The position numbers were made by a program, and so were the translations under genes. Below are positions 1 through 14,594 of a stretch of DNA of 32,500 nucleotides, in pieces. Where the stretch lies: the NCBI GenBank assembly GCA_000252485.1, contig JH610876.1, positions 1-32,500 on the forward strand. Reading direction: 5' to 3'. Source of the DNA: Prochloron didemni P4-Papua_New_Guinea. GTDB taxonomy: Bacteria; Cyanobacteriota; Cyanobacteriia; Cyanobacteriales; Prochloraceae. Positions within the stretch are counted from its first letter, which is position 1; every line of letters begins with the position of its first letter. The notes under the pieces were generated by a model. It saw only the letters and a list, made by a program, of their open reading frames with translations. It was not told where the DNA came from and did no database searches.

Positions 1-36
1 GTTCCACTGAGCGGAGCCGAAGTGTGCGGTTAAACA

Positions 37-831
37 TTAAAGTGGTTCCTTCGTAGGAATCCCCACTGCACGGGGATAGGTGGAAGGAGTGGAATGAGTT
101 TTACGCAGATAAATACAGTGGCGAACGCTTTCCGTCAAAGGAGTCACAAATGACTCAATGGATTCAATTGTACTACCCAGCAGCAACACTGCTTTCTCCA
201 ACATCTCTGTATCGCTATGGCTCCAAACACCGCGATAAAGAATAGCTACACCCCCAATTTTAAGCAATGGTAAAGCATATTCTGCCACTACAGAGGGGGA
301 ACCAACAGCTCTAACTAAAGCTATATCGTAAGTGGCTCGATAGGAGGGCGATCGCCCCATGTCTTCCGCTCTTCCAGAGAGAGTCATGGCATTTTCTATG
401 GCTAACTTATTAATTAAACTAGTCAAGAAAGCAATTTTTTTCCGCGTTGCATCCAGTAGAGTGACTTGACTCGGAGGAAAAGCTATGGCTACGGGAATGC
501 CCGGGAAACCAGCACCAGTACCAATATCGATTACTTTTTGAGAGCATTTTATCTTTTCTATTCCTACTATTTTCTCCAACCCTTTCATGGCGGCTAAAGA
601 ATCCCAAAGATGCTTTTCCCAAAATTCTTTTGGTTCAGTAATGCGAGTGAGATTCAGCTGGCCATTTCCTGTTAATATTTCTTCATATAGTTGCTGAAAT
701 AGCTGCTGTTGCTGGTAGTTTGGCTGCCATTGAAGAGTTTGCTGCCAAATTTCTTCTAACTGTGGATAGTTGATAGTGGATAGTTGATAGTGGATAGTTG
801 ATAGTTGATAGTTGATAGTTGATTTTTTCAT
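37..831 (-). CDS. rsmG: 16S rRNA (guanine-N7)-methyltransferase RsmG
   Basis: RsmG methylates N7 of G527 in 16S rRNA (E. coli numbering) using S-adenosylmethionine, in the cytoplasm. The SAM-binding loop VIDIGTGAGFPGIP lies at residues 100-113 and the following LDATRKK strand at about 126-132; the LNLTRI and FWEKHLWDSL blocks typical of the family precede it. The 264-residue length slightly exceeds the usual size of roughly 210-250. The excess is N-terminal: residues 4-22 have a seven-residue period (STINYQL, STIHYQL, STINYPQ) because they are read through an eight-unit heptamer array. I see no ATG, GTG or TTG between the array and the conserved LEEIWQQ block, so the ATG at 831 appears to be the working start. 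The first internal Met (residue 82) falls inside the domain. The last residues run through a short repeat near the window edge. Family identity is secure. Confidence 0.95.
   Translation of the reverse strand: MKKSTINYQLSTIHYQLSTINYPQLEEIWQQTLQWQPNYQQQQLFQQLYEEILTGNGQLNLTRITEPKEFWEKHLWDSLAAMKGLEKIVGIEKIKCSQKVIDIGTGAGFPGIPVAIAFPPSQVTLLDATRKKIAFLTSLINKLAIENAMTLSGRAEDMGRSPSYRATYDIALVRAVGSPSVVAEYALPLLKIGGVAILYRGVWSHSDTEMLEKAVLLLGSTIESIESFVTPLTESVRHCIYLRKTHSTPSTYPRAVGIPTKEPL
764..819. repeat. Heptamer array (KGATAGT)8 inside rsmG N-terminus
   Basis: Eight consecutive 7-bp units alternate between ggatagt and tgatagt. The array is translated on the minus strand as part of rsmG. Since 7 is not a multiple of 3, gain or loss of one unit would shift the frame between the only upstream ATG and the conserved domain. 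Such short tandem heptamers (STRR type) are known from cyanobacteria. Confidence 0.95.
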
Positions 832-846
832 TTAATCTTAGTTGTT

Positions 847-1185
847 TTAAAAGTTGTTTTCAAAATCTCCATGAATAGCTAACCAAATACAAGGAGGTTC
901 AGCACTGGTATATTCTACCCGATGTTTTTGACCCGCAGGAATAAAAAGATAATCTCCTGCTTTAAGCAAAATTCTTGTGTTATTATCATATAGTAATTCC
1001 GCTTCTCCTTGCAAGAGAATTACCCATTCATCTTTTTCTTGATTGTACCATTGTTGAGGTGGAGTAATCTGTCCAGTAGAGATAATCCTTTCTATTAAGA
1101 TATTTTTTGAAGATAATAATGGTTCAAATAATTCTTCATTGGGTAAAGATAAGGGTAAATTAAAGATATTTCTTTTTTGAGTCAT
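847..1185 (-). CDS. Small cupin-domain protein
   Basis: A single-domain cupin of 112 residues. The second half shows the cupin pattern: DEWVILLQGEAELL (about residues 53-66), then LLKAGDYLFIPAGQKHRVEY (about 73-92), with H88 in the second metal-binding motif position. The first motif lacks the classic paired histidines and has EKDEW instead, so metal binding and catalysis are uncertain. It starts at an ATG 15 bases downstream (in gene terms upstream) of rsmG, on the same strand, so the two probably form an operon with the cupin gene first. No signal peptide or membrane segment is seen. Comparable small cyanobacterial cupins are usually annotated only as cupin-domain proteins; a specific substrate cannot be inferred. 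Confidence 0.85.
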   Translation of the reverse strand: MTQKRNIFNLPLSLPNEELFEPLLSSKNILIERIISTGQITPPQQWYNQEKDEWVILLQGEAELLYDNNTRILLKAGDYLFIPAGQKHRVEYTSAEPPCIWLAIHGDFENNF

Positions 1186-1280
1186 TTTGGGAAAAAATAA
1201 CCAATCTTCTCAATCAATAACCTAGTTTTTTGGCCAAGCACTTGCTAAAGTGTATTTTATGATACAACTTTTTGTCAAGA

Positions 1281-1327
1281 GTTGAGGATTAAACCGTCAA
1301 GCATGAAGTCGTTGACCTATCCTCAAC
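1281..1327. repeat. Inverted repeat in the divergent intergenic region
   Basis: GTTGAGGAT at 1281-1289 and ATCCTCAAC at 1319-1327 are a perfect 9-bp inverted repeat. A second hairpin-like stretch follows near 1374-1396 (GTTCC...GGAAC). Together with the adjacent coding remnant at 1406, this looks like the scar of a lost element. I cannot assign it to a named IS. Confidence 0.5.
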
Positions 1328-1405
1328 ACTCCCACGGTTGGCTGCAAGGTTGGCGGCAATCCGAAAAAATACGTTCCCAGGGCTAACCCAGGAACGCGCA
1401 ATGAC

Positions 1406-1477
1406 ATGACTAGATTTATTCACGACCAATTGCTCTTGTTCCAAACTGGCAGTCTGGGAACAATTGTTAAATCCTAG
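1406..1477 (+). pseudogene. N-terminal remnant of an Rpn-like gene
   Basis: The open stretch starts MTRFIHDQ and then diverges, ending at a stop after 23 residues. These eight residues are identical to the start of the Rpn-like protein encoded at 10422-11495, although the codons differ in part. I read it as the decayed 5' end of a second gene of that family. The match is short, so this is suggestive only. It lies just upstream of the AAA-like fusion gene. Confidence 0.45.
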
Positions 1478-1511
1478 TTTAACATTAATTGGAGAAATTG
1501 CAATTATTTTA

Positions 1512-4067
1512 ATGAATAAACAAAAACTATACGAACCACCCTACTTTGTTGGCGGCAGTATGCCTGGGTCCGAGCCTAGTTACGTTCCCCGACAGGCGGA
1601 CCGAGAACTCTATGATGCATTGACCCTGGGAGAATTTTGCTACGTTTTCAGCCCCCGCCAGACGGGGAAGTCCAGTTTGCTGGTCAGAACCAAACAACGC
1701 CTGTTGGCGGAAGGTATTGCTTGTGCCGAACTAGATTTAATGGATATTAGCAGTAAGCATCTTTCCTTAGAACAGTGGTATGGCAGTATTTTCCGCAATC
1801 TCGTCCGGGGTTTTGGCCTCTCGGATCGGTTCAACTGGTGGAACTGGTGGCGACAGCATTCTTCCCTTGCCCCGGTAAAACGCTTGAGTGTATTTATTGA
1901 AGAAATTGTACTCAAATACGTCAAGGAAGACCTGGTTATTTTAGTAGATGAAATCGATAGTGCGGTAGGTTTAAACTTTTCCTTTGAATATTTTTTGCGT
2001 TTTATCCGTTCTTGTTACGAGCAACGAGCAAACAATAAAGACTATAGAAGATTAACTTTTGCTTTATTTGGCGTGGCCACTACCAAGGATTTAATTAGAA
2101 ATAAGAAACGGAGTCCATTTCCCTTCTGTCGCCAGATAAAATTAAATGCTTTTAGTCGAGATGAGGTAGAGTTTTTAACTCGCCTTTTGGCAGAAAGATT
2201 CAAAAATCAGCAACTAGCTGTGGATGAAATACTGGTTTGGACTGGGGGGCAACCTTTTTTGACTCAAAAACTATGTCAACTGATAGAACATACAGAAGAA
2301 CCCATCGCCCCCAGTACTGATGCAGATTATATGGAATCTGTAGTGCGATCGCAAATAATTGAAAATTGGTTTGCCCGAGATGTACCACCCCATTTACGCA
2401 GTATTAAAAACCGTCTCGATCAGAATATGCGGTTGCTCAAACTCTATCAACAACTTTTAGAACAAGGAGAAATACCAGCCAATAACAGTCAAGAACAATT
2501 AGAATTAATTATCTCAGGCTTGGCTGTGGAAATTGATTCCGAACGAGGGTCTTATTTACGAATTTATAATTCTATTTATAGCGAAGTTTTTCATGAAAGT
2601 TGGGTGAAAACAGAATTGACTAAACGGCGCTACTATACTATTTCCTTACCAGTGTGGTTGCGTTGGCAGGGATTGGCTGCAGGAGCTGCCATCCTGGTTA
2701 TGGCAGCTGTGCTGGGGATTCGGTCTTTATTACCCCAGTCTTGCGGAACCGACCAAGAATGGAGAGGAAGTAAGTGCAAATCTATTCATTCCCAGCCAAC
2801 CCAAACTCCCAGCCCTACCGCTTCATCTCCTGTACTGGAAAGGTTAAGCAGCGGAGAAAGGCGACTTTTGCGTTACAAAGCTAATTTAGACGGTACTAAC
2901 GGGACAAAAGCTTTCAAAGCTGGGAAATATGAAGAGGCGATCGCTTTCTTTAGCAAAGCAGTTCAAGGCGATCGCCGGGATCCAGAAGTTCAAATTTACC
3001 TCAACAATGCCATTGCTCTTCAAAACAGTCTTAACAATGGATTGACTCCTTTTACTTTAGCAGTGGTAGTTCCTGTAGATGGAGATGCCACTTCGGCGGA
3101 AGAAATATTGCGAGGAGTGGCAGATGCCCAAACAGAATTTAACCATGGTGGAGGATTAAACGGTCGCTTATTGACAATAACCATCGTCAACGACGGCAAC
3201 GACCCTGAGGTAGCCGCTGAAGTAGGAGCGGAATTAGGGCAAAATGAAGCTATTTTAGGAGTCATTGGTCACAACTCAGCCAATGCCAGTTTAGCCGCAC
3301 GAACTGCATACGAAAGAGCAGGTATAGCCATGGTTTCTCCCACTACCAGCATCCAGGATTCTGCTGACAAAGTAGCTGACAAAGTATTCGTTCCCATCTT
3401 GCCTTCCGCAGCAGAATCTATAGCCAAACTAGCAGAATATGGCAAGCAAATAGGAATAGAAAAAATAGCTGCCTTCTACGATTTTGCCGAGAGTTCTAGT
3501 TTAGAACAGCCTTTAATCCAACATTGGGGCAATGGATTGGTTAAGCAAATAAATCTCAGCGATCCAGATCCCAACTTCAATCTAGCCAGTGAGGTACAGG
3601 CCCTTCAAGGAGAAGTAGATGCCATCTTGCTTTTACCCAACCCCAAATCTATATCTGTGGCTATTGCCACTGCAGTAGAAAATAGCAAACTTCCTTCAGA
3701 AGCAAAACTGCAATTATTGGGCAATAAAACACTTTACACCCCGATAACTTTAACTAATGGAGGTAATGCAGTAGTAGGAATGGTTCTCGCTGTTCCTTGG
3801 TTTGGGGAAAATGCCTATGGGGAAACCGCAGCAAAAAGATGGTTGGGAAGAGTTAGTTGGCGTACCGGTACTAGCTATAACGTCACTAAAGCTTTAATTG
3901 AAGCTTTATCGGAAGATGCCACTCCCAGTACTGTGTTGAATAACCTTAAGAATAGATTGGTAGAGGGGGATGGCTTGGAACCTATTTTAGTTAAAGCGGG
4001 TAGAGGAAAAAACACACCTCAAGGAAGTCAATTTACTTTCCTGCCAGTGGAAGAGGGAGAAAACTAA
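1512..4067 (+). CDS. AAA-like ATPase / TM / TPR / periplasmic-binding receptor fusion
   Basis: A large multidomain protein of about 851 residues from the ATG at 1512; a TTG at 1464 would add 16 residues and is less convincing. Residues about 20-300 form a cyanobacterial AAA-like domain (AAA_35 type): Walker A SPRQTGKSS near 47-55 and Walker B VILVDEIDS near 140-148. A helical/winged segment follows, ending in ESWVKTELTKRRYY. One membrane span is at about 387-407 (GLAAGAAILVMAAVLGI). Outside it comes a Ser/Thr/Pro linker, one TPR-like unit (KAFKAGKYEEAIAFF, about 465) and, from about 513 to the end, a type I periplasmic-binding fold like branched-chain amino-acid receptors (FTLAVVVPVDG, GVIGHNSANAS). 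Inferred topology is a cytosolic ATPase with an extracytoplasmic ligand sensor, that is, a receptor-like signalling ATPase. Its ligand and output are unknown. The last ~120 bp recur at 6308-6453. Confidence 0.85.
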   Translation: MNKQKLYEPPYFVGGSMPGSEPSYVPRQADRELYDALTLGEFCYVFSPRQTGKSSLLVRTKQRLLAEGIACAELDLMDISSKHLSLEQWYGSIFRNLVRGFGLSDRFNWWNWWRQHSSLAPVKRLSVFIEEIVLKYVKEDLVILVDEIDSAVGLNFSFEYFLRFIRSCYEQRANNKDYRRLTFALFGVATTKDLIRNKKRSPFPFCRQIKLNAFSRDEVEFLTRLLAERFKNQQLAVDEILVWTGGQPFLTQKLCQLIEHTEEPIAPSTDADYMESVVRSQIIENWFARDVPPHLRSIKNRLDQNMRLLKLYQQLLEQGEIPANNSQEQLELIISGLAVEIDSERGSYLRIYNSIYSEVFHESWVKTELTKRRYYTISLPVWLRWQGLAAGAAILVMAAVLGIRSLLPQSCGTDQEWRGSKCKSIHSQPTQTPSPTASSPVLERLSSGERRLLRYKANLDGTNGTKAFKAGKYEEAIAFFSKAVQGDRRDPEVQIYLNNAIALQNSLNNGLTPFTLAVVVPVDGDATSAEEILRGVADAQTEFNHGGGLNGRLLTITIVNDGNDPEVAAEVGAELGQNEAILGVIGHNSANASLAARTAYERAGIAMVSPTTSIQDSADKVADKVFVPILPSAAESIAKLAEYGKQIGIEKIAAFYDFAESSSLEQPLIQHWGNGLVKQINLSDPDPNFNLASEVQALQGEVDAILLLPNPKSISVAIATAVENSKLPSEAKLQLLGNKTLYTPITLTNGGNAVVGMVLAVPWFGENAYGETAAKRWLGRVSWRTGTSYNVTKALIEALSEDATPSTVLNNLKNRLVEGDGLEPILVKAGRGKNTPQGSQFTFLPVEEGEN

Positions 4068-4068
4068 T

Positions 4069-4096
4069 GTCAACTGTCAACTATCAACTATCAACT
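4069..4096. repeat. Heptamer array directly before the ATPase start
   Basis: Four 7-bp units (gtcaact twice, atcaact twice) end six bases before the ATG at 4102 and occupy the position where a ribosome-binding site would be. The intergenic space between the fusion gene and the ATPase is almost entirely this array, followed by gctata. Confidence 0.9.
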
Positions 4097-4101
4097 GCTA
4101 T

Positions 4102-5277
4102 ATGTCTGGTTTACAAAAACTAATCGTCAGAAACTACCGTTCCCTGGAACATGTAGAAGTAAATCCACAAAAAAACAATGTATTATTTGGTCCCAATGGT
4201 TCCGGTAAAACAACTTTTCTGGATGCAATTTGGTTTATTAGAGACTGTGCAATTCGTGGTGTAGATGTTGCTGCATCAGATCGAAGTCATGGGATTGGTA
4301 TTCTCTGGGATCGAGCGGAACCCGGTGCGTCCATTTCCATCGAGCTAGAAACTGCACGAGCAAATTATAGCCTTAGTTTTGGTTTGGAGTCCGGCAGAAT
4401 TGAGTCCTATGTGGGAGAAAAGCTAACAGCAAAAAACAGCGATCGCATTTTAATAAATCGTATTATTGGCAGCAATAAAGCAAGTTTTTTGAGTTCGGAA
4501 ACGAACAAATTTGTTTCGGTGGCTCTCCGAGAACCTCAAAAACTTGCTCTAAACCGCTATCTTGATTTTGAAAATAATGCTTTGGAAGCTGCAGAAGTGG
4601 ACGAACTATTGCGTTATACTCGAAAATACAACACACGTTCTGCAGATATTTATGGCCTCCGAACCTACGGATCTGCCTCGGATTCCCATCAGCATTTATA
4701 CCACCGATGTGAAAATTTATGGTCGGTGGTTCGGAATCTAAAAGAGAAGCGAGAACTGGGTGAAAACAGCTACGATACCATCATGCAATTCATGCAGAAA
4801 AGCTTTCCCAGATTTGATAAAATTTATCTTGAGTCCCAAGGTGCTAACAATGTCTATGGCAGTTTCATTGAAAAAGATCGTCAAGAACCCATTAAGGCTT
4901 CTGGAGTTTCCGATGGTCACTTACAGCTTCTGATTCATCTAACTGCTTTATTCTCTGAAGGCGATCGCTCAACTTTAATTCTTCTGGACGAACCTGAAAT
5001 ATCTCTTCATCCCTATGCCTTAGCCACTCTAGCTGAAGCAGTAAATGAAGCAGTTGCTAACTGGAATAAACAGGTTTTTATTGCCACCCATTCTCCCGTT
5101 TTAATTAGCCAATTTGATATAGAAAATATTATTGCTACCGAAACTGGTTCCTACGGTCAAACAATGATGCAGCGAGTCAGCGAGATGAGGGAAATACAGG
5201 ATTTATTGGCTGAATATCCCCTAGGTTCCCTTTATATGGCTGAACTGATTGCGCCTCAAAGTAAATTGAAGGTATAG
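4102..5277 (+). CDS. ABC/RecF-like AAA_21 ATPase (OLD-like, TOPRIM-partnered)
   Basis: A 391-residue ATPase of the AAA_21/RecF-SMC type. Walker A FGPNGSGKTT is at residues 29-38, preceded by the typical LIVRNYRSLEHVEV strand. An ABC-signature-like SGVSDGHLQLL lies near 266, Walker B LILLDEPEISLHP near 292 and a switch histidine in ATHSP near 329. No TOPRIM domain is fused to the C-terminus. Instead the next gene encodes a separate TOPRIM-like protein. ATPase/TOPRIM pairs of this kind (OLD-family, AbiL-, RloAB- or PARIS-like) commonly act in phage defence by an ATPase sensor releasing or activating a nuclease; that role here is inferred from arrangement. The start codon has a heptamer array in place of a Shine-Dalgarno. 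HIP1 octamers occur inside the gene (about 4439 and 4960), so it is not compositionally foreign by that measure. Confidence 0.85.
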   Translation: MSGLQKLIVRNYRSLEHVEVNPQKNNVLFGPNGSGKTTFLDAIWFIRDCAIRGVDVAASDRSHGIGILWDRAEPGASISIELETARANYSLSFGLESGRIESYVGEKLTAKNSDRILINRIIGSNKASFLSSETNKFVSVALREPQKLALNRYLDFENNALEAAEVDELLRYTRKYNTRSADIYGLRTYGSASDSHQHLYHRCENLWSVVRNLKEKRELGENSYDTIMQFMQKSFPRFDKIYLESQGANNVYGSFIEKDRQEPIKASGVSDGHLQLLIHLTALFSEGDRSTLILLDEPEISLHPYALATLAEAVNEAVANWNKQVFIATHSPVLISQFDIENIIATETGSYGQTMMQRVSEMREIQDLLAEYPLGSLYMAELIAPQSKLKV

Positions 5278-5278
5278 T

Positions 5279-5533
5279 AGTTGACAGTTGATAGTTGATA
5301 GTGGATAATTGATAGTTGATATAGCGCTCTATAGTAGGGTGGGCATTGCCCACCACAGCATCAGGAGCTGTAGTCAACATCAGTATCAATAGTCTTCTGA
5401 CTCCCTGCAGTTACAATATTCTGAAAAAACTAGATATTAAAGCAACTGGTTTTGACCGCACCCGTTGACAGTTGACAGTTGATAGTTGATAGTTGATAGT
5501 TGATAGTTGATATAGCGCTCTATAGTTTGAGAA
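5279..5533. repeat. Repeat-filled gap: two heptamer arrays, hairpin, MITE scar
   Basis: No gene is evident here. Six heptamer units (agttgat type) span 5279-5320 and seven (gttgata type) span 5464-5512; each is followed by the same tail, atatagcgctctatagt. Between them lies a perfect 8-bp-arm hairpin GGTGGGCATTGCCCACC (5338-5354), a common cyanobacterial intergenic motif. The second array ends 21 bases before the TOPRIM-like gene start. The paired array-plus-tail structure suggests a segmental duplication of the leader region. Confidence 0.85.
5443..5463. mobile_element. Right-end remnant of the 177-bp MITE family
   Basis: CAACTGGTTTTGACCGCACCC differs at two positions from the right terminus of the complete MITE at 25244-25420. 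Only the end is recognisable; the left end is absent, so this is a relic. Confidence 0.55.
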
Positions 5534-6309
5534 ATGTCCGATGCGTGTTACTACTTCAAATTCATTTTATTTGTAACAGGAAAAGGTGAGAAACAACATT
5601 TGCCCAAAATGTTTCAATCTTTATCAAAATCAGGAATTTGCTCCTTTTCTGTAGAAGAATTCGTGGCCCAGCGTCGGCCAATTACATCGCCGAAACGAAT
5701 CGCACGGATGGTAGAAGTCAGAAACTTCCCAATCGGGACTTTGAAGAAATTGGTATCCCAGCAAGGCGATATATTCAAGCAAATCCATGTTATCGAGTTA
5801 TCTTAATTGACGATCTTGAAGGAATTAGTGAAGTAGAAGCGATCGCAACCTTTAACCGTTATCGAAAAGCGCTAGATATGGGTTTGGGAAAGCACAAAGG
5901 GCTTGCTTCAGTTCACTTTCTAGTCAATATGCTTGAAGCTTATTTTTTTGCAGATTCAGATGCTCTCAATCTAGCATTAAATCTCGATCCACCTGTTGAT
6001 TTTGATAATGGTGATGTAGAAACAATAAAACATCCTAAAAACAAACTCAAGGAGATTTTTCCAGCTTATAGGGAAACCGAACATCCCGGTTTGGTTTTGG
6101 ATTTGCTGGATCTGGATGTTGTTCTCTCCAATCCTGATTATTGTGCATCCCTCAGAACCTGTGTTAAATGGATTGTCCATCGAATCGAGACTTATGCCGA
6201 TGGCGAATACTTGAAAAAACTTGATTTTGAGGGACGCTTCCACCTCACAACAGGCAAACTTTATGATGTGTCCGCCAATCAATTAACCGGGGAGTATCAA
6301 GTTTTGTGA
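5534..6309 (+). pseudogene. TOPRIM-like DUF4276-type gene, broken by a -1 frameshift
   Basis: The N-terminal part, MSDACYYFKFILFVTGKGEK onward, is open from 5534 in one frame through RRPITSPKRIARMV. The continuation, GRSQKLPNRDFEEIGIPARR and VILIDDLEG, lies in the -1 frame and runs to the stop at 6307-6309. Joining the two near 5710-5716 gives a continuous protein of about 258 residues, consistent with loss of one base (atggtagaagt where atggtaggaagt would keep frame). The first strand plus GKGEK and the later ILIDDLE fit the acidic positions of a TOPRIM fold, although the usual first Glu position is Thr. It would be the nuclease-like partner of the ATPase upstream. Either the pair is inactivated, or this is a sequencing error or recoding; the sequence alone cannot separate these. 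Confidence 0.7.
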
Positions 6310-6453
6310 ATAACCTCAAGAATAGATTGGTAGAGGGCGATCCCGCAGGGCCGCTCTTAGCGATCGCCTTGAACCTATTTTAGTTAAAGCGGGTAGAGGA
6401 AAAAACACGCCTCAAGGAAGTCAATTTACTTTCCTGCCGGTGGAAGAGGGAGA
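6308..6453 (+). pseudogene. Second copy of the 3' end of the AAA/receptor fusion gene
   Basis: This stretch repeats 3938-4060, the last codons of the fusion gene, with few substitutions (for example LVEGD, LEPILVKAGRGK, GSQFTFLPVEEG). It carries an insertion of about 25 bp around 6340-6368 containing a palindromic ccgcaggg motif and a HIP1 octamer. The duplicate begins exactly where the TOPRIM-like gene stops, so the ATPase/TOPRIM pair lies between two copies of the same gene end. Confidence 0.9.
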
Positions 6454-6472
6454 TAGGATGCGATGAACACAG

Positions 6473-6719
6473 CTGACTCTCTGACAATAATAGCTAAAAC
6501 CATTATATATCAAGGGTTTCAGCATGACAGAGACTTTCTTAATTTTACTGTTTTCTCTGTGCTAAATGGGATTTTATACCTATCAAATTTCGTAAAACCC
6601 CTATAAGTTCCTTCACACAACAATAAATTATTTTTAAATCTCGTCTCTATTTAAACCAATTTGAGGTTTCTGTAATTCTTGCTATATAAGCTTTACAAGC
6701 ATAGTTGTCAGAGAGTCAG
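6473..6719. mobile_element. MITE-like element with perfect 15-bp terminal inverted repeats
   Basis: CTGACTCTCTGACAA at 6473-6487 is exactly inverted at 6705-6719. The 247-bp interior is AT-rich and has no credible ORF. It fills the gap before the hydrolase gene, whose start is 68 bases beyond the right end, so it may supply that locus with its promoter. No clear target duplication is visible. Confidence 0.7.
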
Positions 6720-6787
6720 GTTTTTTGGAATTTTTGAGGATGGTGCAAGATCTGAGTATAATAGTTTTTAGAACTTTTGAGGGTTAT

Positions 6788-7717
6788 ATGGCTGAAAGAA
6801 GAATGGGCTTGCTCCCAATCAAAGGTTGTGACAATTCCAATCGCAGTGGTGATGTAATTTTTGTTCACGGACTGGGAGATCATCCCATAACAACATGGTA
6901 TCCAAATCCACAAGAGATAAAAAAGGAAGTGGATACAGATGAATTTTGGACGGAAAAGTTACCCAATCTAAATTTTTGGCCTAATTGGCTGGGAGAATAT
7001 AGATCCGATCTTGGTATTTGGTCTTACGGCTATGAAGCTATGCCTTTTCTGGAAGACACTCCTTTAGCAAAAGTCCCAGCAATAGGACAGCAAATACCCA
7101 CTGGTAAAGCTTCTCCTATTTTAGATCAAGCTAGCGAACTCCTCGAACTTTTGCAACAAAGAGATATTCTTCAGCGACCTCGAATTTTTGTCACTCATAG
7201 TTTAGGTGGTTTAATTGTTAAAGAGACGCTTGATTCTGCTTACGATGATTTCAACAGTAACCCGAAAATGAAACAGATTATCGGGCAGACTAAAGGGGTT
7301 GTTTTTTTAGCAACTCCTCATCAGGGTTCAGATTTAGCTAATTTCAAGGAACTATTAGCTCGAACTGTAAAAGCTTTCCGTCTTCTCAAAGAAAACGTTA
7401 TTCTTAATGAACTTCGCTCGGATAACATTAATACTCAGTTGTATAAAATGGGTAAATGGTATAGCGGCAATGCTCAAGTTTTAGCAATTGAAACAAAAAC
7501 ATTTTACGAAACTGAAGAGACGGAAATTCCAGCAATAGGAAAGCAAATAGTTGTAGATCGTTACAGTAGCGATCCAAATGTAGGCAGTAGACCCACTGCC
7601 GTAAATGGAGCAGATCATTTTACTATTGCTAAACCCCAAAATCAAAGTAGTGTTGTTTATATTGGGGTCAAAGAATTAATTGATGAGTATTTACCTATAA
7701 AAAAAATCAAAACCTAA
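6788..7717 (+). CDS. SERAC1-like alpha/beta hydrolase, N-terminal part of an NLR-like protein
   Basis: About 309 residues from the ATG at 6788, chosen because GAGGG lies four bases upstream; ATG 6740 and TTG 6725 are weaker alternatives. It is an alpha/beta-hydrolase of SERAC1 type: oxyanion-hole region VIFVHGLGDHP near residues 23-33, nucleophile elbow THSLGGLI near 136-143 with Ser as nucleophile, FLATPHQGSDLA further on, and a candidate catalytic His in GADHFTIAKP near 277. The frame ends at TAA 7715, ten bases after an A8 tract. In the -1 frame the reading continues without a stop into the NB-ARC gene. Hydrolases of this kind serve as N-terminal effectors in bacterial and fungal NLR-like proteins. 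Here it is either split from its ATPase or joined to it by frameshifting. Substrate (lipid or ester) is unknown. Confidence 0.85.
   Translation: MAERRMGLLPIKGCDNSNRSGDVIFVHGLGDHPITTWYPNPQEIKKEVDTDEFWTEKLPNLNFWPNWLGEYRSDLGIWSYGYEAMPFLEDTPLAKVPAIGQQIPTGKASPILDQASELLELLQQRDILQRPRIFVTHSLGGLIVKETLDSAYDDFNSNPKMKQIIGQTKGVVFLATPHQGSDLANFKELLARTVKAFRLLKENVILNELRSDNINTQLYKMGKWYSGNAQVLAIETKTFYETEETEIPAIGKQIVVDRYSSDPNVGSRPTAVNGADHFTIAKPQNQSSVVYIGVKELIDEYLPIKKIKT
7699..7705 (+). other. Candidate -1 slippery heptamer A AAA AAA
   Basis: Zero-frame codons are ATA AAA AAA ATC AAA ACC TAA, so A AAA AAA sits in the exact phase used for -1 slippage. After the shift the frame reads through NQNLKYLQVQ and a Glu/Gln-rich linker into LLGREQEIEVIKN, the canonical entry to an NB-ARC domain. 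I see no strong stimulatory hairpin or upstream Shine-Dalgarno. A plain indel in an eight-A run is the simpler alternative. Confidence 0.5.
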
Positions 7718-7851
7718 AATATCTTCAAGTACAACCAACAGCGATAGAAAAACAAGAAGAAGATGAAGGTGGGCAACAAGAAAAGCAGGAATTAGCGAAA
7801 ATTCCTTCTCCAAGCTATATTGAACTTTTAGGCCGTGAGCAAGAAATTGAG

Positions 7852-8844
7852 GTGATTAAGAATGTTTTAGAAGATCCAACAAGCAAACGTTTAGTAGCAA
7901 TTACTGGACTGGGAGGCAATGGTAAAACTTCTTTAGCTATTGAAGCGGCAAAATCCTTTAAGCAAATGGGTTTTCAAAACATTGTATGGTACACAGTGCC
8001 AGCAAAACGAAATGATACTTCTATAACTTTCCATACTATCCTTGAGGAGATTGCCAATCAATTAGGAACACTAGAAGTTCCTATTATTAAAGCTGAGGAG
8101 TTAAAAAGAAAAACCCGTGAGGTGCTATCTAATACACGAGTTCTGATAGTGTTAGATAACATGGATACTTCCGAGGAACCTCAAAATGAGATTGCTGAAA
8201 AGCTATGCTCAATTTTAGGTAAGAGCAAAGTTTTGTTTACCAGTCGCCATCGTTTTCAAACTTTAGGAGTCGATGTTTTTGAGCGCTATTTACAAGGTTT
8301 AGACGCAGAACAATCTATCAAGTTAATGGAGCAAACTGCTCAAGAAAGAAATATATCTAATTTGGATTCCAACAATGCCCAATCGCTGCTGAAACTAACT
8401 GGTAATAGGAAAACAGGCTATTTACCTTTAGCTTTGAAGTTGGTAACAGGTCAACTCCAAAATAAAAGCCCGTTAGAAATTGCAAGGAGCTTAGAAAGTG
8501 TTACTGTAAATACGACAGACCTAGAGCCTGACAATAAAAATATTTTTCACAAGTTTTGGTGGCATATCTATTTCCCATCTTTCAAGATACTATCCAAATC
8601 AGAACTTGATTTGATGTTTTTTATAGCAGGATTAACGGAACAAGAAGGTACTACGCAAGATAGACTTCTACATATGACGAGAGAAACATTAACAGAAAAG
8701 CAATTTACGCAAGCCATTAATAGGACTTGGTGTTTGTGTTTGTTGGAAAAGGAACGATATGGCAAACAACGTTATTATTTGCATATGTTGACCAGTAAAT
8801 TTTTCAAAACAATTCTAGCCTATGCAGGGAGGATAAATCAATGA
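7852..8844 (+). CDS. NB-ARC STAND NTPase
   Basis: The open frame from GTG 7852 gives 330 residues, but the domain clearly begins earlier: LLGREQEIEVIKN is encoded from about 7825, and that frame stays open back to 7687. Walker A GLGGNGKTSLA is at 19-29, Walker B VLIVLDNMD near 96-104, a sensor-like VLFTSRHR near 126-133 and the GLPLAL-type motif as GYLPLALKL near 190. These are hallmarks of the NB-ARC switch ATPases of NLR immune receptors and of bacterial STAND regulators and defence proteins. A winged-helix-like C-terminal part is plausible. It overlaps the TPR gene by ATGA. The gene therefore provides the switch of a hydrolase/NB-ARC/TPR system. True N-terminus depends on whether the A8 tract is slippery or a mutation. 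Confidence 0.88.
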   Translation: MIKNVLEDPTSKRLVAITGLGGNGKTSLAIEAAKSFKQMGFQNIVWYTVPAKRNDTSITFHTILEEIANQLGTLEVPIIKAEELKRKTREVLSNTRVLIVLDNMDTSEEPQNEIAEKLCSILGKSKVLFTSRHRFQTLGVDVFERYLQGLDAEQSIKLMEQTAQERNISNLDSNNAQSLLKLTGNRKTGYLPLALKLVTGQLQNKSPLEIARSLESVTVNTTDLEPDNKNIFHKFWWHIYFPSFKILSKSELDLMFFIAGLTEQEGTTQDRLLHMTRETLTEKQFTQAINRTWCLCLLEKERYGKQRYYLHMLTSKFFKTILAYAGRINQ

Positions 8845-10214
8845 TAGAAAATAATGTAATAAATAGAATACCTCAAGGATTGCAGGATGTAAAAAATTTT
8901 AAATATTTACAAGAAGAATATCGTAATGGATTGACCGATGAGGAAAGAAAATTGATTGACCTTGAGCTTGAAACAATGTTTAATCCTGAAGAATTACATG
9001 AGATTCAGGAAAAACTAAAGCGATTATTCAGAAACTATAATGAGTATATTAAACCAACGATTATCAAAACATATAATGAATTTTCTCAAGAGCATAATCG
9101 CTATCTGGATCCTAAGTTTTCTAAAAAGGCTACCGAATCTTCTATTGAAACCCAGTCAAATTCAGAAAAGAAAGCTCTGGATTTTTTCCAAACTGAGCTA
9201 AACAATATTAAATTAGCTCTTAGCTATGCCAAAGAAGAACAGCAGTGGCAAAAAATTATTGAAATTAGCGAAAGTCTGCAAAGATTTCTGAGACTCCAAA
9301 CTTATTGGGAAGATTTAGAAAAGATACAAAAAGATGCAATTTTAGCAGCTCAACAAGCTGAAGAGCGTTTGACACAAGCTAACTTACTGAATCAATATGG
9401 TGAGTTACAGCGCTTACTAAGGAAAGCAGACGAGGGAATAGAAAAATGCGAGGAAAGCAAGCGCATTTTTCAAGAATTAAACCACGAATATGGTGAAGCC
9501 AAAGCTTTATATAATTTAGGTTATCTTAACCGTTCGGTAGGCAATTGGGACAAGTCGGCTGAAGCTTTTGAGGGTTCGTTGAAACTATTTAGGAAAGTAG
9601 AGAAAAGTCAAAATTTAGATCTAGACGAAGAGATAGCAGAAGCACTTGATGGTTTGGGTCTAATTTACACCAGACAAGAAAGATTAGAAAGTGCTAAAAA
9701 AGTTTTACTAGAGAGTCTCAATATCAAAAACAAACTTAACAATCGATTTTTAATAAGTAAAACTACCAACAATTTGGGTAAAGTTTACATTGAACTTTAT
9801 AAAATTCAAAAACAACTCAACTTTTTAGAAGAAGCAAAAATGCTATTTGAAAAAAGTTTAGAAATCGGGCGAGAACAGAATAATCGCCAAGGACAAGGTG
9901 TTTCCCTGAATGAGCTAGGTAAAGTTCACCGCCTAATGGGAAATTATAAGAAGGCATTAGAATATTTTAATGAAAGTTTAAAAGTTAAAAAGCAAGTATC
10001 TGGTACTAAAGGTGGTGCTTCTGATCGCAATGGGGAAGGACTTACATACATGGAGATCGGTTTTTTATATCAAGAGCAGGGCAAACAAGAACAAGCACAA
10101 AATGCTTTTGAGAAGGCGATTGATAACCGCTTGAACTTTTACTCTGCTCAATATGAGGAAGTCTCTAAAATTCTTCAAGCAAATAAAACTCTAGCAATCA
10201 GGAATGATTTATGA
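8841..10214 (+). CDS. TPR-repeat protein, sensor part of the NLR-like locus
   Basis: A soluble protein of 457 residues whose ATG overlaps the TGA of the NB-ARC gene (ATGA), indicating translational coupling. The first ~150 residues are helical and charged. From about residue 150 there are tetratricopeptide units, for example AKALYNLGYLNRSVGNWDKS, EALDGLGLIYTRQERLES, GVSLNELGKVHRLMGNYKKA and EGLTYMEIGFLYQEQGKQEQ. Superstructure repeats of this kind form the C-terminal sensor in STAND proteins, so this is probably the ligand-recognition arm of a protein now encoded in pieces. The gene is AT-rich and contains no HIP1 octamer. No signal peptide or membrane span is seen. Confidence 0.85.
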   Translation: MIENNVINRIPQGLQDVKNFKYLQEEYRNGLTDEERKLIDLELETMFNPEELHEIQEKLKRLFRNYNEYIKPTIIKTYNEFSQEHNRYLDPKFSKKATESSIETQSNSEKKALDFFQTELNNIKLALSYAKEEQQWQKIIEISESLQRFLRLQTYWEDLEKIQKDAILAAQQAEERLTQANLLNQYGELQRLLRKADEGIEKCEESKRIFQELNHEYGEAKALYNLGYLNRSVGNWDKSAEAFEGSLKLFRKVEKSQNLDLDEEIAEALDGLGLIYTRQERLESAKKVLLESLNIKNKLNNRFLISKTTNNLGKVYIELYKIQKQLNFLEEAKMLFEKSLEIGREQNNRQGQGVSLNELGKVHRLMGNYKKALEYFNESLKVKKQVSGTKGGASDRNGEGLTYMEIGFLYQEQGKQEQAQNAFEKAIDNRLNFYSAQYEEVSKILQANKTLAIRNDL

Positions 10215-10318
10215 GAATAAGTGAGGCTGTATTGGTCTTTATAGGGTTAACTAGTTCTCACATCTGATTATTGATTGCTATATTGGTTGTTTCTTGCCTG
10301 CACTGAGCGCTTGCCCTG

Positions 10319-10377
10319 CCCTTCGACTTCGCGGCCAGTGAGCGGAGCCGAACTGCAGGGACCGCGTAGTCGAAGGG
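10319..10377. repeat. REP-like inverted repeat
   Basis: CCCTTCGACTTCGCGG (10319-10334) pairs with CCGCGTAGTCGAAGGG (10362-10377) with one mismatch. The loop carries gtgagcggagccgaa, a motif also present at the left window edge (about 7-22). It lies between the convergent TPR and Rpn-like genes and could act as a bidirectional terminator or simply be a dispersed repeat. Confidence 0.75.
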
Positions 10378-10421
10378 TAGCCGAAGTGTTCATTGCCGAT
10401 TGTTAATTATTAATTACTTAA

Positions 10422-11495
10422 TCAAAAACGAGCTAATAAATCTTCTCGAGACGATTGAAGTAATAAAGGAGTAAATTCTTCTGGTGATAATGCTGTTAAC
10501 GGCTCAATAATCCTGGAGATTTCCTCATCAATAGAACCAAAGCGAATTCTTAGTAGGCTTTCAATCATCACACGACGCTCTCCTTTCTTTCCTCGTTCGA
10601 TACCTTGTTCTAGACCTCGTTCGATACCTCGTTCGATACCTTGTTCAATACCTCGTTCGATACCTTGTTCAATACCTTGTTCGATACCTCGTTCAATACC
10701 TTGTTCGATACCTCGTTCGATACCTTGTTCGATACCTTGTTCGATACCTCGTTCGATACCTTGTTCAATTCCTTGCTGAGTAGCATTTTCCAGTTTTTCC
10801 AGATAAATAGTAGATAACTGCATAACCAACTCCTTATCTTCTTGGTCTAATTGTTGTTTTTGTCTTACTTCCAAAAGAGAAAGCATCTCATAAACTAATT
10901 CTAGTGCATTGTTTCGGAGTGTACTTTCCAGCGGTAAAGATTTTAGTTCTTTAATTGCCTTTTCTTGAACCTTTCCCCGACCCAAGATTCTGAACCAGAG
11001 AGTTTCTGGGTTGTCAGGTAGTTGATGAACTGCAATAACTCTCCCTTGGAGAATATCTGGCAGCAAGTAAACCCCTTTCGGATAGTTTTCTTTATCGGGA
11101 ACTGCACAGCAGCGTTTGATTAATTCGGAGGAAAATGTGGGGGAGATAATCCAGAGAAACGGTAATTCTGCTTCTGAGATTTTTTTCTTTTTTCGCTTGG
11201 CTTCTCTTTCTATTTTATCGCGAAAGCTATTTAATTTGCAGCAACAACTGACAAGTTCTTTGGGACTTACTGCATTGCGAAATGGTTCCAATAACGCCGA
11301 ACTTGCTGCTAGTTTTGCAGCCATTGTCATGGTGGGATTATTTGCTGGATTTTTCCCTTTAGCAATAAATAAGACATCGGCCTGTTTTACTTCTGCTGCA
11401 ATATCAACGCTGGTTTTAACTTCTCCTTCTCCGAAGAAGGCTAACAGTTCTGCCAGGTATTTTTTGGCGAATTGGTCATGTATAAAGCGGGTCAT
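10422..11495 (-). CDS. Rpn-like PD-(D/E)XK nuclease with DUF4351 C-terminus
   Basis: About 357 residues from the ATG at 11495 (MTRFIHDQFAKKYL), the standard start for this cyanobacterial family; the frame extends 26 codons upstream through repeat DNA and that part is probably not translated. The N-terminal half matches Rpn/transposase-related nuclease-like proteins, with DIAAEVKQADVLFIAKG near 33-49. Residues about 241-300 are fifteen consecutive GIEQ or GIER tetrapeptides. The C-terminus, MIESLLRIRFG to SREDLLARF, resembles DUF4351. Such proteins have often been mislabelled flagellar assembly protein H because of the tetrapeptide stretch. Family members promote recombination or behave as selfish endonucleases; activity here is inferred. 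The gene has no HIP1 site. Confidence 0.8.
   Translation of the reverse strand: MTRFIHDQFAKKYLAELLAFFGEGEVKTSVDIAAEVKQADVLFIAKGKNPANNPTMTMAAKLAASSALLEPFRNAVSPKELVSCCCKLNSFRDKIEREAKRKKKKISEAELPFLWIISPTFSSELIKRCCAVPDKENYPKGVYLLPDILQGRVIAVHQLPDNPETLWFRILGRGKVQEKAIKELKSLPLESTLRNNALELVYEMLSLLEVRQKQQLDQEDKELVMQLSTIYLEKLENATQQGIEQGIERGIEQGIEQGIERGIEQGIERGIEQGIEQGIERGIEQGIERGIERGLEQGIERGKKGERRVMIESLLRIRFGSIDEEISRIIEPLTALSPEEFTPLLLQSSREDLLARF
10593..10776. repeat. 12-bp tandem array, about 15 units, in the Rpn-like gene
   Basis: Units of the type cgttcgatacct or tgttcgatacct repeat about fifteen times with occasional a/g variants and encode the GIEQ/GIER tetrapeptides. Twelve base pairs keep frame, so copy number can change without breaking the protein. 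Confidence 0.95.
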
Positions 11496-11912
11496 TTTTC
11501 TTGGTTGTTGGTTGTTTACTCTAATTGCCAGGCCGCACCGCGAAGCGTATCCCTTCGGGATCGCCCGTCCCAAATCCTTTTCAATACTTTTGCAAAAAGT
11601 ACGAAATTACTACAGCAAGAGGATTTGGGAGCGTCTCGCCATCCCCCAGACACTATAATAACACATTTTCGCTCAGTGCGAAAATTTACCTGACGGAGTT
11701 ATACCAACGAATCACTAATAGACTTTTTCAGCAAACCCTATATAGCGAGAGGGGGAAATCTCATCTGACAGTTGATAGTTGACAGTTGATAGTTGATAGT
11801 TGATAAAATAAACAAAGAAAACCAGTAGAAACATAACCCTATAAATGATGTGTATTCAGCCTTAGAGCTTGTTCGGTTCTTCTAAATCGACCAGTGTCTA
11901 AGATAAGGACAA
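11496..11912. repeat. Intergenic region with palindromes and heptamer array
   Basis: No gene is supported. There is a HIP1-like REP stretch (gcgaagcgtatcccttcggg, 11541-11560), an inverted repeat CCCAAATCCT (11569-11578) / AGGATTTGGG (11620-11629), and a hairpin TTTTCGC-TCAGT-GCGAAAA near 11665-11683. Five gttgata/gttgaca units lie at 11771-11805. Two ttggttg units at about 11501-11515 lie just upstream of the Rpn-like start. Confidence 0.75.
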
Positions 11913-12677
11913 TTATTCTAAATCTTGAATAAATGCTTCATGCTCTACCGAGTTAATTCCAGCTTGTAAAACCGCTAAAACCCGTTGCATATTTCCTTGC
12001 AACATAGCTTTAACATCTAACCGCAAACCGGGAAACACTTGAGAACGAATAATCCCTTCCTCTTCTATCAAACTAATATAATCTCCATCCTGCAAACTAA
12101 ACCAATCAATTTTTTCCTCAAATACCTGCCAAACAATATATTCTCGTACTCCGCTGCGTCGATAAGCGCGTTTTTTATCCCCTAAATCTATCGCTGAACT
12201 ACTAGCAGCAATTTCAACTACTAATTCCGGTGCTAATTCCAAATATCCCTCTTCACTTAAACGGGACTGTCCTCCCTTTTCAGGACTGATAAGTAAAACA
12301 CCATCAGGTTGAACTTCGTTGTCAATATCTAACCGAACCGTTGGCTCAATACCCATTTCCACTTGGGATGTAGCAGCTTGATAAACTCCCAGCCAAGTAA
12401 TTATACGTCCGTGAGGTTCGGCGTGGGGTCTAAAGCGTAAGGGGGATGCCATGTATACAACTCCTTCAATCAATTCCGCTTTTTTTACTTCTGGCATTGT
12501 TTGGTAACGACGCTCGAATTGAAGAATAGTCAAGCGATCTCCATTTTCCAATGGTGGCAATTGTTGAGTAAATTTGTTATTTGTTATTGGTTGTTGGTTG
12601 TTGGTTGTTTGTTGTTGGTTGTTTGTTGTTTGTTTATTAATAGGAAAGTTTAATGAGCTTGGATGAAAACTATTCAT
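11913..12677 (-). CDS. Uma2-family (DUF820) putative endonuclease
   Basis: A 254-residue member of the Uma2/DUF820 family, PD-(D/E)XK-fold proteins that are expanded in cyanobacteria. The core pattern is visible: ELIEGVVYMAS (about 68-78), VQPDGVLLI with Asp125, PELVVEIAASS with Glu155, then DLGDKKRAYRRSGVREYIVW with Lys169. These fit the nuclease D...E-x-K arrangement. Residues 15-35 are low-complexity (QTTNNQQ type) because the frame begins in a ccaacaa-like heptamer array. I kept ATG 12677 because there is no other Met before the domain (the next is residue 61). Biological role is unknown; the family is common next to mobile and defence genes. Confidence 0.88.
   Translation of the reverse strand: MNSFHPSSLNFPINKQTTNNQQQTTNNQQPITNNKFTQQLPPLENGDRLTILQFERRYQTMPEVKKAELIEGVVYMASPLRFRPHAEPHGRIITWLGVYQAATSQVEMGIEPTVRLDIDNEVQPDGVLLISPEKGGQSRLSEEGYLELAPELVVEIAASSSAIDLGDKKRAYRRSGVREYIVWQVFEEKIDWFSLQDGDYISLIEEEGIIRSQVFPGLRLDVKAMLQGNMQRVLAVLQAGINSVEHEAFIQDLE
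12576..12636. repeat. Degenerate ttgttgg heptamer array in the Uma2 N-terminus
   Basis: Mixed ttgttgg and ttgtttg units spanning about 60 bp are translated on the minus strand as Asn/Gln/Thr-rich sequence. It is the same family as the ccaacaa array before modBC. Confidence 0.85.
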
Positions 12678-12738
12678 GGTTATTTACACATGCAATATTA
12701 TATGTTACGACTGAAGAAGATTATCAATCTTGCTGAAG

Positions 12739-12797
12739 CGCGATCAGGCGTAGCCTGCCACTGCGTGTGCTGCGAAGCAGATCCCGCAGGGATCGCC
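12739..12797. repeat. HIP1-related palindromic repeat cluster
   Basis: Short palindromes (ggcgtagcctgcc, tgctgcgaagca, atcccgcagggat) follow each other directly. The ccgcaggg core also occurs in the insertion at 6340-6368. Typical cyanobacterial REP-type filler; no gene. Confidence 0.6.
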
Positions 12798-12837
12798 CCC
12801 CACCATTTCATATTATATCGCTTCGAGCGAAATATGC

Positions 12838-12985
12838 TATAGCGCTTCGCGCTGGTGTCGTTACATGCTACATTTATACAAAAGTGCTACATCTGCTGCA
12901 TCACCTTTGTACAAAGCGAAAGGGGCATTTTTCCGATCGACCTCTTAATTGAGAGATTGTTAATTGTTCATTGGGAATTGCTATA
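12838..12985. mobile_element. MITE-like element, copy 1 (148 bp)
   Basis: It begins TATAGCGCTTCGCGCT and ends TTGCTATA, and matches 31570-31719 over its whole length. The interior contains the complementary segments acaaaagtgctac and caccTTTGTaca and the line gcgaaaggggcatttttc. No coding capacity. The second copy at 31570 is demonstrably an insertion, which supports mobility of the family. Confidence 0.8.
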
Positions 12986-13016
12986 TTAATTAATTGTAAG
13001 ATGACCGCGAAAAAAA

Positions 13017-13337
13017 ATGTCCGAACAAAAAACCATTGTTAAAGCCCGTCGAAGAAGTAGAATCTTTCCCCAGATTCAATGGTCTTCAGAAAAGATAGCT
13101 CGATGGAAAGCAGAACAAGAGAAATTATATCAACGTTGCAAGCCAATTTTTGAATCGCTAAAACCCACATATATCCATAGCCACTATAACTGGTATCTGG
13201 CGATCGAGCCAAACAGTGGAGATTATTTTCTTGCTGAAAATGAGTTAGAGGCGATCGACCTGTCGAACCAAAAATATCCTAACGCTCCCGTACATATTTT
13301 TCGGATTAATGAAACAGGAGTTGCAGGAACCATATGA
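13017..13337 (+). CDS. Conserved small protein, DUF5678-like
   Basis: A 106-residue protein starting at ATG 13017. The N-terminus is basic (KARRRSR). The second half, YNWYLAIEPNSGDYFLAENE to PNAPVHIFRINETGVAGTI, resembles DUF5678-like proteins, in which a 'W-x-A-I-x-x-x-S/T-G' block precedes an Ala-rich helix and a final 'P...F.RIG' strand. In other cyanobacteria such genes often precede a small aspartic-protease-like gene; here only a few codons (MISEN then stop) follow, so any partner is lost. Function unknown; the family assignment is by resemblance only. Confidence 0.6.
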   Translation: MSEQKTIVKARRRSRIFPQIQWSSEKIARWKAEQEKLYQRCKPIFESLKPTYIHSHYNWYLAIEPNSGDYFLAENELEAIDLSNQKYPNAPVHIFRINETGVAGTI

Positions 13338-13472
13338 TTAGTGAGAACTACTAGATTAAACAACAATTATTCTAATATTTTTTATTTGTTTGTTTATTTA
13401 TTGTTATTTATCTATGAGCTGGAAAATAATGTAGAGACACCGCATTGCCGTACCCCTACACAATTAAATAAA
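13338..13472. repeat. Convergent intergenic region with inverted motif
   Basis: AT-rich sequence is followed by gtagagacaccgcattgccg and then taccccTAC (13431-13459), an imperfect form of the common cyanobacterial GTAGAGAC...GTCTCTAC repeat. It lies between two gene 3' ends. No gene is seen. Confidence 0.5.
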
Positions 13473-14594
13473 TCACTTCAACCAACCCTTCAAACGACGA
13501 GAAACTTGAGGACGACGCAATTTCCGCATCGCTTTAGTTTGAATCTGACGCACTCGCTCTCGCGAAAGATTCAATATTCCTCCCACTTCCTCTAAAGTAT
13601 GAGTCTGACTGGTAGTCAAACCATAGCGCAAAGAAATCACATCCCTTTCTCGTTCCGTCAGTACATCGTTTAACACCTCCCAGATTTCCTGACGCATCAT
13701 TGCTTCACTCATTTGCTCTTCTGGAGTCTGAAGGTCGTTATCTTCCAGCAAATCCAGCAATTCCGTATCTTCTCCCTTTCCCACCCGATGGTTCAGAGAA
13801 AGAGATTGCCGTCGCAATTGAAATAAATGGCGTAGCTGAGGCAAAGTGATTTCCAATTCTGCTGCCAATTCTGATTCATTGGGATTGCGCTGCAATGTTT
13901 GTTTGAGGTTGCGCTGGGCTTTTTTCAGTTTGTTGAGTTTTTCTACTATATGAATGGGCAAGCGAATAGTGCGAGCATCGTTAGCAATAGTGCGGGTAAT
14001 AGCTTGGCGAATCCACCAGTAAGCATAGGTAGAAAACTTATATCCTTTATTGGGGTCGAATTTCTCCGCTGCCCGATTCAAACCGATCGCCCCTTCTTGA
14101 ATCAAATCTAAGAAAGGAACTCCTCGATTTAGATACCGTTTGGCAATAGAAACCACTAACCTCAAATTAGAACGAATCATGGTGCGTTTTGCCACCCGAC
14201 CGCCATAGAGCTGATTGTCCAGTTGCCGTTCGCTCTCTAACCCTAAGGCTGCTGCTAATTCTGCTTTTTGCGGCTGCCGTCCCAACTCCAATTCTAGTTG
14301 CTGTTGTTTCTCTTCTGCCGCGACTAAAAACGTGACACAATGAGCTAATTCTATTTCCTCTTCTGCTTTCAGTAAGGGATAACGAGCCATTTCTTTGAAA
14401 AAAGAACCAATCGTATCGTCAGTATTCTTCTCGCTAACTCGGGAACTGCGAGGGTTTTTTGACTTCGAGGAACTGTGAGAAAATTCTACTTCTACTAATT
14501 TTCCATCTTCTTGCCCTGGTTCCCCAACTCCTTTCAGAGATATACTAGCTGTGGAGTCAAGCTTATTGTCTCGGTCTATACAAGAGATATTCAT
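13473..14594 (-). CDS. RpoD-like group 2 sigma factor
   Basis: A 373-residue sigma-70 family protein. Region 1.2 is TIGSFFKEMARYPLLKAEEE; region 2 includes LRLVVSIAKRYLNRGVPFLD, LIQEGAIGLNRAAEKFDP and YKFSTYAYWWIRQAITRTI (core binding and -10 recognition); region 3 follows. Region 4 has LTERERDVISLRYGL and LEEVGGILNLSRERVRQIQ, the -35-recognising helix-turn-helix. It lacks the long N-terminal region 1.1 of a primary sigma factor, so it is one of the alternative group 2 factors of cyanobacteria (SigB/C/D/E class). I do not assign a letter. The first ~50 residues are Ser/Asn-rich and probably disordered. The start at 14594 is the only good Met ahead of region 1.2. The 3' end converges on the DUF5678-like gene. 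Confidence 0.92.
   Translation of the reverse strand: MNISCIDRDNKLDSTASISLKGVGEPGQEDGKLVEVEFSHSSSKSKNPRSSRVSEKNTDDTIGSFFKEMARYPLLKAEEEIELAHCVTFLVAAEEKQQQLELELGRQPQKAELAAALGLESERQLDNQLYGGRVAKRTMIRSNLRLVVSIAKRYLNRGVPFLDLIQEGAIGLNRAAEKFDPNKGYKFSTYAYWWIRQAITRTIANDARTIRLPIHIVEKLNKLKKAQRNLKQTLQRNPNESELAAELEITLPQLRHLFQLRRQSLSLNHRVGKGEDTELLDLLEDNDLQTPEEQMSEAMMRQEIWEVLNDVLTERERDVISLRYGLTTSQTHTLEEVGGILNLSRERVRQIQTKAMRKLRRPQVSRRLKGWLK

What the first reader, a model, noticed from the sequence alone, without database searches (positions are those of the whole stretch)
3938..6453. ATPase/TOPRIM pair enclosed by two copies of the upstream gene's 3' end
The last ~120 bp of the AAA/receptor gene (3938-4060) recur at 6308-6453, starting exactly at the stop of the TOPRIM-like gene. 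A cassette placed behind a gene end with that end duplicated looks like integration at a 3' end or loss of a second full gene copy by recombination.
Basis: partly seen in the sequence, partly recalled or inferred. Interest (0 to 1): 0.65.

Follow-up and report, generated by a model that had tools for sequence, protein, structure and literature searches.

The report
Gene-end relic beside broken defence pair
In a cyanobacterium related to sponge symbionts, a two-gene candidate anti-phage pair lies between a gene and a damaged second copy of that gene's tail; the tail is most likely the leftover of a second copy of the gene rather than an integration scar, so this is mostly ordinary genome wear.

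Summary
The repeat is real. Window 3937-4060, the 3' end of an intact AAA_35/Peripla_BP_6 gene, recurs at 6307-6453. The copies match at 117 of 124 bases once a 23-bp dispersed unit in the second copy is skipped, and they are the only two in the genome.

Between them lies a pair matching PADLOC candidate system HEC-01: an intact AAA_21 ATPase and a DUF4276 gene frameshifted by a 4-bp deletion.

Six of seven differences between the copies are synonymous (dN/dS about 0.1; P about 0.002 under neutral change), so they diverged while both were coding. This favours a relic of a second, diverged gene copy or allele over a fresh target duplication. No integrase or recombinase was recognised on the contig. 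Pairs at seven other loci have no duplicated gene ends. The two congeners carry the pair elsewhere (after murT), and their AAA/receptor gene has different neighbours.

A one-step alternative remains: single-crossover insertion of a circle holding the pair plus a divergent gene end. No relative keeps a syntenic empty site or a full second copy, so the event is unproven. Interest is low; the pair's recurrent aminotransferase-rimM site is the more useful by-product.

The parts
1464..4067 (+). Complete AAA/receptor gene: AAA_35 domain plus Peripla_BP_6 receptor domain, 867 aa
   Evidence: ORF; Pfam AAA_35 1e-26, Peripla_BP_6 4.9e-19; 67% identical homologue in G001
3937..4060 (+). First copy of the repeat: the coding 3' end of the AAA/receptor gene
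4068..4101 (.). Array of TCAACTA/TCAACTG-type heptamers between the gene stop and the ATPase start, a repeat type found at several places in the window
   Evidence: sequence; families D2 and I4-I24
4102..5277 (+). Intact AAA_21 (OLD/AriA/RecF-type) ATPase, 391 aa, PADLOC HEC-01A
   Evidence: Pfam AAA_21 1.4e-31; PADLOC HEC-01A 1.4e-48; 85% identical in both congeners
5279..5526 (.). About 250 bp of repeat-rich sequence separating the two genes of the pair (two 57-nt copies, 96% alike); only 3 bp separate the genes in LD05
   Evidence: family D2
5534..6309 (+). DUF4276 (TOPRIM-like, HEC-01B) gene, frameshifted by a 4-bp deletion near 5714; its stop TGA is the first codon-length of the repeat
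   Evidence: two overlapping frames; alignment to LD05; DUF4276 in intact relatives
6307..6453 (+). Second copy of the repeat: 5'-truncated, non-coding relic of the AAA/receptor gene end
6338..6360 (.). 23-bp HIP1-linked dispersed unit inside the relic (position given to within a few bases because its ends repeat)
6473..6719 (.). 247-bp MITE-like element with 15-bp terminal inverted repeats CTGACTCTCTGACAA, directly behind the relic
   Evidence: full 87% copy at G000:C518:13285-13534

Best explanation
The downstream repeat is the residue of a second, independently evolving coding copy of the AAA/receptor gene, either a tandem paralogue or an allele from a related strain. Its 5' part was lost in a recombination or deletion that joined the stop codon of the DUF4276 gene to about codon 825 of that copy. 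The pair in between is an ordinary, horizontally exchanged two-gene HEC-01-like candidate defence system: an OLD/AriA-like ATPase, probably the sensor and restraint, plus a DUF4276 effector. It is not an integrative element. In this genome the pair has since lost its effector by frameshift. Shown: the repeat, the coding-type divergence, the frameshift, the family matches, the non-syntenic positions in congeners. Inferred: the order of events, the deletion itself, and that intact versions act against phages.
For: Only 7 substitutions in 124 bp, 6 synonymous, P = 0.0017 against neutral change, dN 0.022 and dS 0.211. Relative to the congener, the coding copy changed at 3968 and the relic at 4016, so both lineages evolved. 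Junction at the DUF4276 stop with a shared TGA, as in illegitimate joining. No other copy in the genome. No recognised integrase on the contig. Pairs elsewhere lack gene-end duplications. The pair occupies different places in congeners and other families, and its ATPase is less diverged at fourfold sites (65%) than four housekeeping genes (47-56%), P = 0.005.
Against: No genome with a complete second copy at this place was found. Four of the seven differences are clustered beside the inserted unit and may be fewer events; on the three isolated ones alone P is only 0.018. The different sequences behind the two copies (4061 and 6454 onward) need a second breakpoint under a tandem-copy model, which a single-crossover insertion would not.
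Confidence: 0.5

Rival explanations
1. Single-crossover (Campbell-type) insertion: a 2.37-kb circle carrying the pair plus a divergent 3' end of the AAA/receptor gene recombined with the chromosomal gene, leaving one full gene, the pair, and a 5'-truncated gene end followed by the original downstream sequence. No integrase is needed.
For: One event explains the full gene on the left, the truncated copy on the right, the abrupt change of sequence behind each copy at 4060 and 6453, and the divergence if the circle came from another strain.
Against: No relative has the pair linked to an AAA/receptor gene end; no plasmid, phage or viral contig carries a relative of the pair; 124 bp is short for homologous recombination between copies about 6% apart.
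Confidence: 0.27
2. Insertion of the pair by repair of a staggered break within the gene end, the repeat of about 124 bp being a long target duplication that then decayed.
For: One-step origin of a direct repeat flanking foreign DNA; the right copy is non-coding now.
Against: A fresh duplicate should collect mostly amino-acid-changing substitutions in its non-coding copy; six of seven differences are synonymous.
Confidence: 0.1
3. Site-specific integration at the gene's 3' end, with the repeat as attL/attR of a small non-autonomous element.
For: Topology matches: full gene, cargo, displaced gene end.
Against: No recognised recombinase on the contig; copies only 94% alike and one interrupted by a 23-bp unit; no gene-end repeat at seven other loci with the pair; homology with congeners stops at the coding ends of the pair.
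Confidence: 0.06

Closest known systems
PADLOC HEC-01 (candidate two-gene system, AAA ATPase + DUF4276)
   Same: ATPase matches HEC-01A profiles best (1.4e-48) and lies directly upstream of a DUF4276 partner in intact relatives
   Different: The partner matches HEC-01B profiles only weakly (best 4e-5 in LD05) and is frameshifted in the window; separated by about 250 bp of repeats here
PARIS (AriA/AriB) and other OLD-family systems
   Same: Separate ABC-type ATPase and TOPRIM-like genes; ATPase matches AriA (1e-34) and, at its ends, GajA and AriA structures
   Different: HEC-01A scores far higher than AriA; the partner has no AriB match and is DUF4276
Gene-end duplication from integration at gene 3' ends (integrative elements)
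   Same: Cargo flanked by a full gene and a displaced gene end
   Different: No recombinase recognised, imperfect and interrupted repeat, coding-type divergence, no recurrence at other loci
HIP1 repeats and small dispersed repeats of cyanobacteria (HIP1: PMC4390886)
   Same: The 23-bp unit in the relic carries GCGATCGC and is dispersed and locally tandem in this genome
   Different: Not compared unit by unit with published repeat families

Membership tests
HEC-01 (PADLOC) | ATPase matching HEC-01A | tested here: met
   1.4e-48, best of all PADLOC models
HEC-01 (PADLOC) | Adjacent DUF4276 partner matching HEC-01B | tested here: inconclusive
   Intact LD05 partner: DUF4276 1.2e-8 above the gathering cut-off, HEC-01B only 4e-5. 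Window gene is frameshifted
HEC-01 (PADLOC) | Protects against phage | not testable with these tools
   Needs a plaque assay; HEC-01 itself is a candidate system
PARIS | AriB-type TOPRIM partner | tested here: not met
   No AriB model at E up to 0.1 for the LD05 or UBA11372 partner
PARIS | AriA-type ATPase | tested here: inconclusive
   AriA 1e-34 but HEC-01A 1.4e-48
TOPRIM nuclease | Conserved acidic motifs | tested here: met
   E of TGxxE and DDLE invariant in seven intact partners; in the window they are in different frames
TOPRIM nuclease | TOPRIM fold | tested here: inconclusive
   Models unusable, pLDDT 33 and 38; no PDB sequence match
Integrative element at a gene 3' end | Recombinase gene within or near the element | tested here: not met
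   None recognised on the contig; one acting in trans is not excluded
Integrative element at a gene 3' end | Empty site with one gene end in relatives | tested here: inconclusive
   G001 has a single gene end but in another neighbourhood
Integrative element at a gene 3' end | Same arrangement recurring with other copies of the cargo | tested here: not met
   Seven other pair loci have no duplicated gene end
Integrative element at a gene 3' end | Excised circular form | not testable with these tools
   No reads available

The most novel reading that the evidence does not exclude
The pair is a small non-autonomous unit that integrates behind genes as a circle carrying a stretch of the target gene's end, by an unidentified recombinase, and can excise again. 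The repeat would then be a functional attachment site.
Probability: 0.06. Interest if true: 0.5.

Novelty: new member of a known kind. Interest (0 to 1): 0.2.

Why it matters
As a structure it is a small record of gene duplication, exchange and loss around a candidate defence pair. Its main use is as a caution: a gene-end repeat around defence cargo need not be an integration scar, and the synonymous/non-synonymous pattern of the two copies helps to tell. The by-products, a recurrent aminotransferase-rimM site for HEC-01-like pairs with many empty counterparts, and effector-gene damage in two of three congeners, give testable material on how such pairs are gained, moved and disarmed in cyanobacteria.

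Tried and rejected
Empty-site comparison at this locus: no relative keeps the same flanks. Further copies of the gene end in the genome and 100 relatives: only the two window copies and one in G001, plus short weak matches. Mobile carriage of the pair: no match in plasmids, phages or viral contigs. Structure prediction of the DUF4276 protein gave unusable models (pLDDT 33 and 38), so no fold search was made; the TOPRIM label rests on family matches and the E/DDLE motifs. A first idea, that the natural DUF4276 stop had been lost in the window, was dropped: the window's longer end (..NQL..) agrees with six of the seven relatives, which have QL at that place, so the LD05 stop is the odd one. A literature search found no paper in the held library naming both HEC-01 and PADLOC, and none naming DUF4276.

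Full report
What is there. The window is a whole contig (C411, 32,500 bp) of a 5.7-Mb cyanobacterial genome whose two congeners in the held set are Candidatus Paraprochloron terpiosi genomes: G001, equal in length to CP073341 (LD05), and G002, matching the SP5CPC1 contig. Gene 1464-4067 encodes an AAA_35 domain and a Peripla_BP_6 receptor domain. Behind it come an AAA_21 ATPase gene (4102-5277), a DUF4276 gene (5534-6309), the repeated gene end (6307-6453), a 247-bp MITE-like element (6473-6719), and a hydrolase / NB-ARC / TPR gene set (6725-10214).

The repeat. Bases 3937-4060 recur at 6307-6453. The alignment scores 200 against a maximum of 36 in 200 shuffles. The second copy is 23 bp longer because of a HIP1-linked unit that is dispersed in this genome and tandem with 23-bp spacing on contig C85. 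No third copy exists in the genome. The sequence behind the two copies is unrelated from 4061 and 6454 onward.

How the copies differ. With the extra unit skipped there are seven substitutions in 124 positions. Five are at third codon positions, six are synonymous, and one changes Gly to Arg. The expected synonymous fraction for random changes in this stretch is 0.26, so six or more of seven has P = 0.0017. The NG86 estimate is dN 0.022 and dS 0.211. Four of the seven are clustered beside the inserted unit; the three isolated ones are all synonymous (P = 0.018). Against the congener's gene end, the coding copy carries a change at 3968 and the relic one at 4016. The simplest reading is that both sequences were coding while they diverged and that the downstream one became a fragment only later. 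A fresh duplication at insertion, followed by decay of the non-coding copy, does not predict this.

The junctions. On the right, the DUF4276 frame ends with a TGA that is also the first three bases of the repeat. Its last codons (..NQL..) agree with six of seven relatives, so the join lies at, or within a few codons of, the natural end of that gene. On the left, homology with LD05 begins one base before the ATPase start codon, behind an array of heptamer repeats that is common in this window. The part shared with the congeners is thus the two genes and nothing more.

The pair. The ATPase is intact and matches PADLOC HEC-01A best (1.4e-48), well ahead of AriA (1e-34) and GajA. The partner in relatives is a DUF4276 protein that matches HEC-01B weakly and AriB not at all. 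Invariant positions in seven intact partners include the E of TGxxE and DDLE, as expected of a TOPRIM-type nuclease, but no usable structure was obtained. In the window the partner gene has a 4-bp deletion near 5714 that puts these two motifs in different frames, and about 250 bp of repeats lie between the two genes, which are 3 bp apart in LD05. In SP5CPC1 the partner gene has a large internal deletion that also removes the DDLE part, while the ATPase frame is kept. In PARIS the ATPase holds the TOPRIM effector inactive until a phage trigger appears (PMC12409363). By analogy, loss of the effector with retention of the ATPase is a plausible way for such a pair to be disarmed; that is inference, not shown.

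Where the pair sits in relatives. In LD05 and SP5CPC1 it follows murT; the window genome's murT is followed by a ridA-like gene instead, with no pair. In UBA11372, G055, G073 and G060 it sits between an aminotransferase gene and rimM, and G038 has it at matching coordinates. Of 35 genomes in which I found those two genes linked, the gap is below 400 bp in 26 and 1,986-2,084 bp in the four that hold the pair, so clean empty sites exist there. In G005 and G093 the pair is in yet other places. None of seven loci tested has a duplicated gene end around the pair. The ATPase is less diverged from LD05 at fourfold sites (65%) than murT, cobA, petJ and a sigma gene (47-56%), which suggests exchange after the species split; codon bias was not modelled. 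No relatives of the pair were found on plasmids, phages or viral contigs.

A syntenic empty site or a full second gene would decide the case. Neither is available. G001 has a single close AAA/receptor gene, next to cobA; G002's copy is cut by its contig end and has an in-frame stop; the window genome's cobA has no AAA/receptor gene beside it. Of the part of the window searched (1-19,500), only 13473-19333 keeps its neighbourhood in G001.

Mechanism. Two histories remain. In the first, a second coding copy of the AAA/receptor gene stood behind the pair and lost its 5' part by a join at the DUF4276 stop. In the second, a circle carrying the pair and a divergent gene end inserted by a single crossover; this accounts for both junctions and both flanks in one step. 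I put the first somewhat ahead because no relative links the pair to such a gene end, no mobile carrier was found, and 124 bp is little homology. Site-specific integration has the same topology as the second history but lacks a recombinase, an intact repeat and any recurrence.

Verdict. Observation confirmed. Integration at the gene's 3' end by a recombinase is not supported. A relic of a second, diverged coding copy is favoured, with a single-crossover insertion as the main rival; the two cannot be separated with the genomes at hand. The thing is an ordinary product of gene exchange and decay around a known kind of candidate defence pair.

Noticed in passing
L050 3115-7314; L114, L115, L116, L118 (G055, G073, G060, G038): HEC-01-like pair sits between an aminotransferase gene and rimM in five genomes from at least two families, while 26 of 35 genomes with those genes linked have a gap under 400 bp: a recurrent insertion or loss site with clean empty counterparts and no flanking direct repeats.
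   Followed up: partly
window 6725-10214: Alpha/beta hydrolase, NB-ARC and TPR frames look like one STAND/NLR-type gene split by a frame change near a run of A at about 7700 and a 4-base ATGA overlap at 8841; the hydrolase part matches PADLOC DUF626_VIII (2.9e-15) and LmuA (6e-7).
   Followed up: partly
window 6473-6719: 247-bp MITE-like element with 15-bp terminal inverted repeats; one full 87% copy and several partial matches elsewhere in the genome.
   Followed up: partly
L049 7087-7335: The DUF4276 gene of Paraprochloron SP5CPC1 has a large internal deletion, so two of three congeners have a damaged effector gene beside an intact ATPase.
   Followed up: partly
L048 10083-13468: Next to the pair in LD05 lie two further AAA_21 ATPase genes and a small partner gene on the opposite strand, one ATPase apparently truncated: a second, related ATPase/partner family at the same spot.
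   Followed up: no
window 10422-11573: Gene whose product ends in a long 4-residue repeat (GIEQ/GIER), encoded by a 12-bp tandem array; no Pfam match at 0.001.
   Followed up: no
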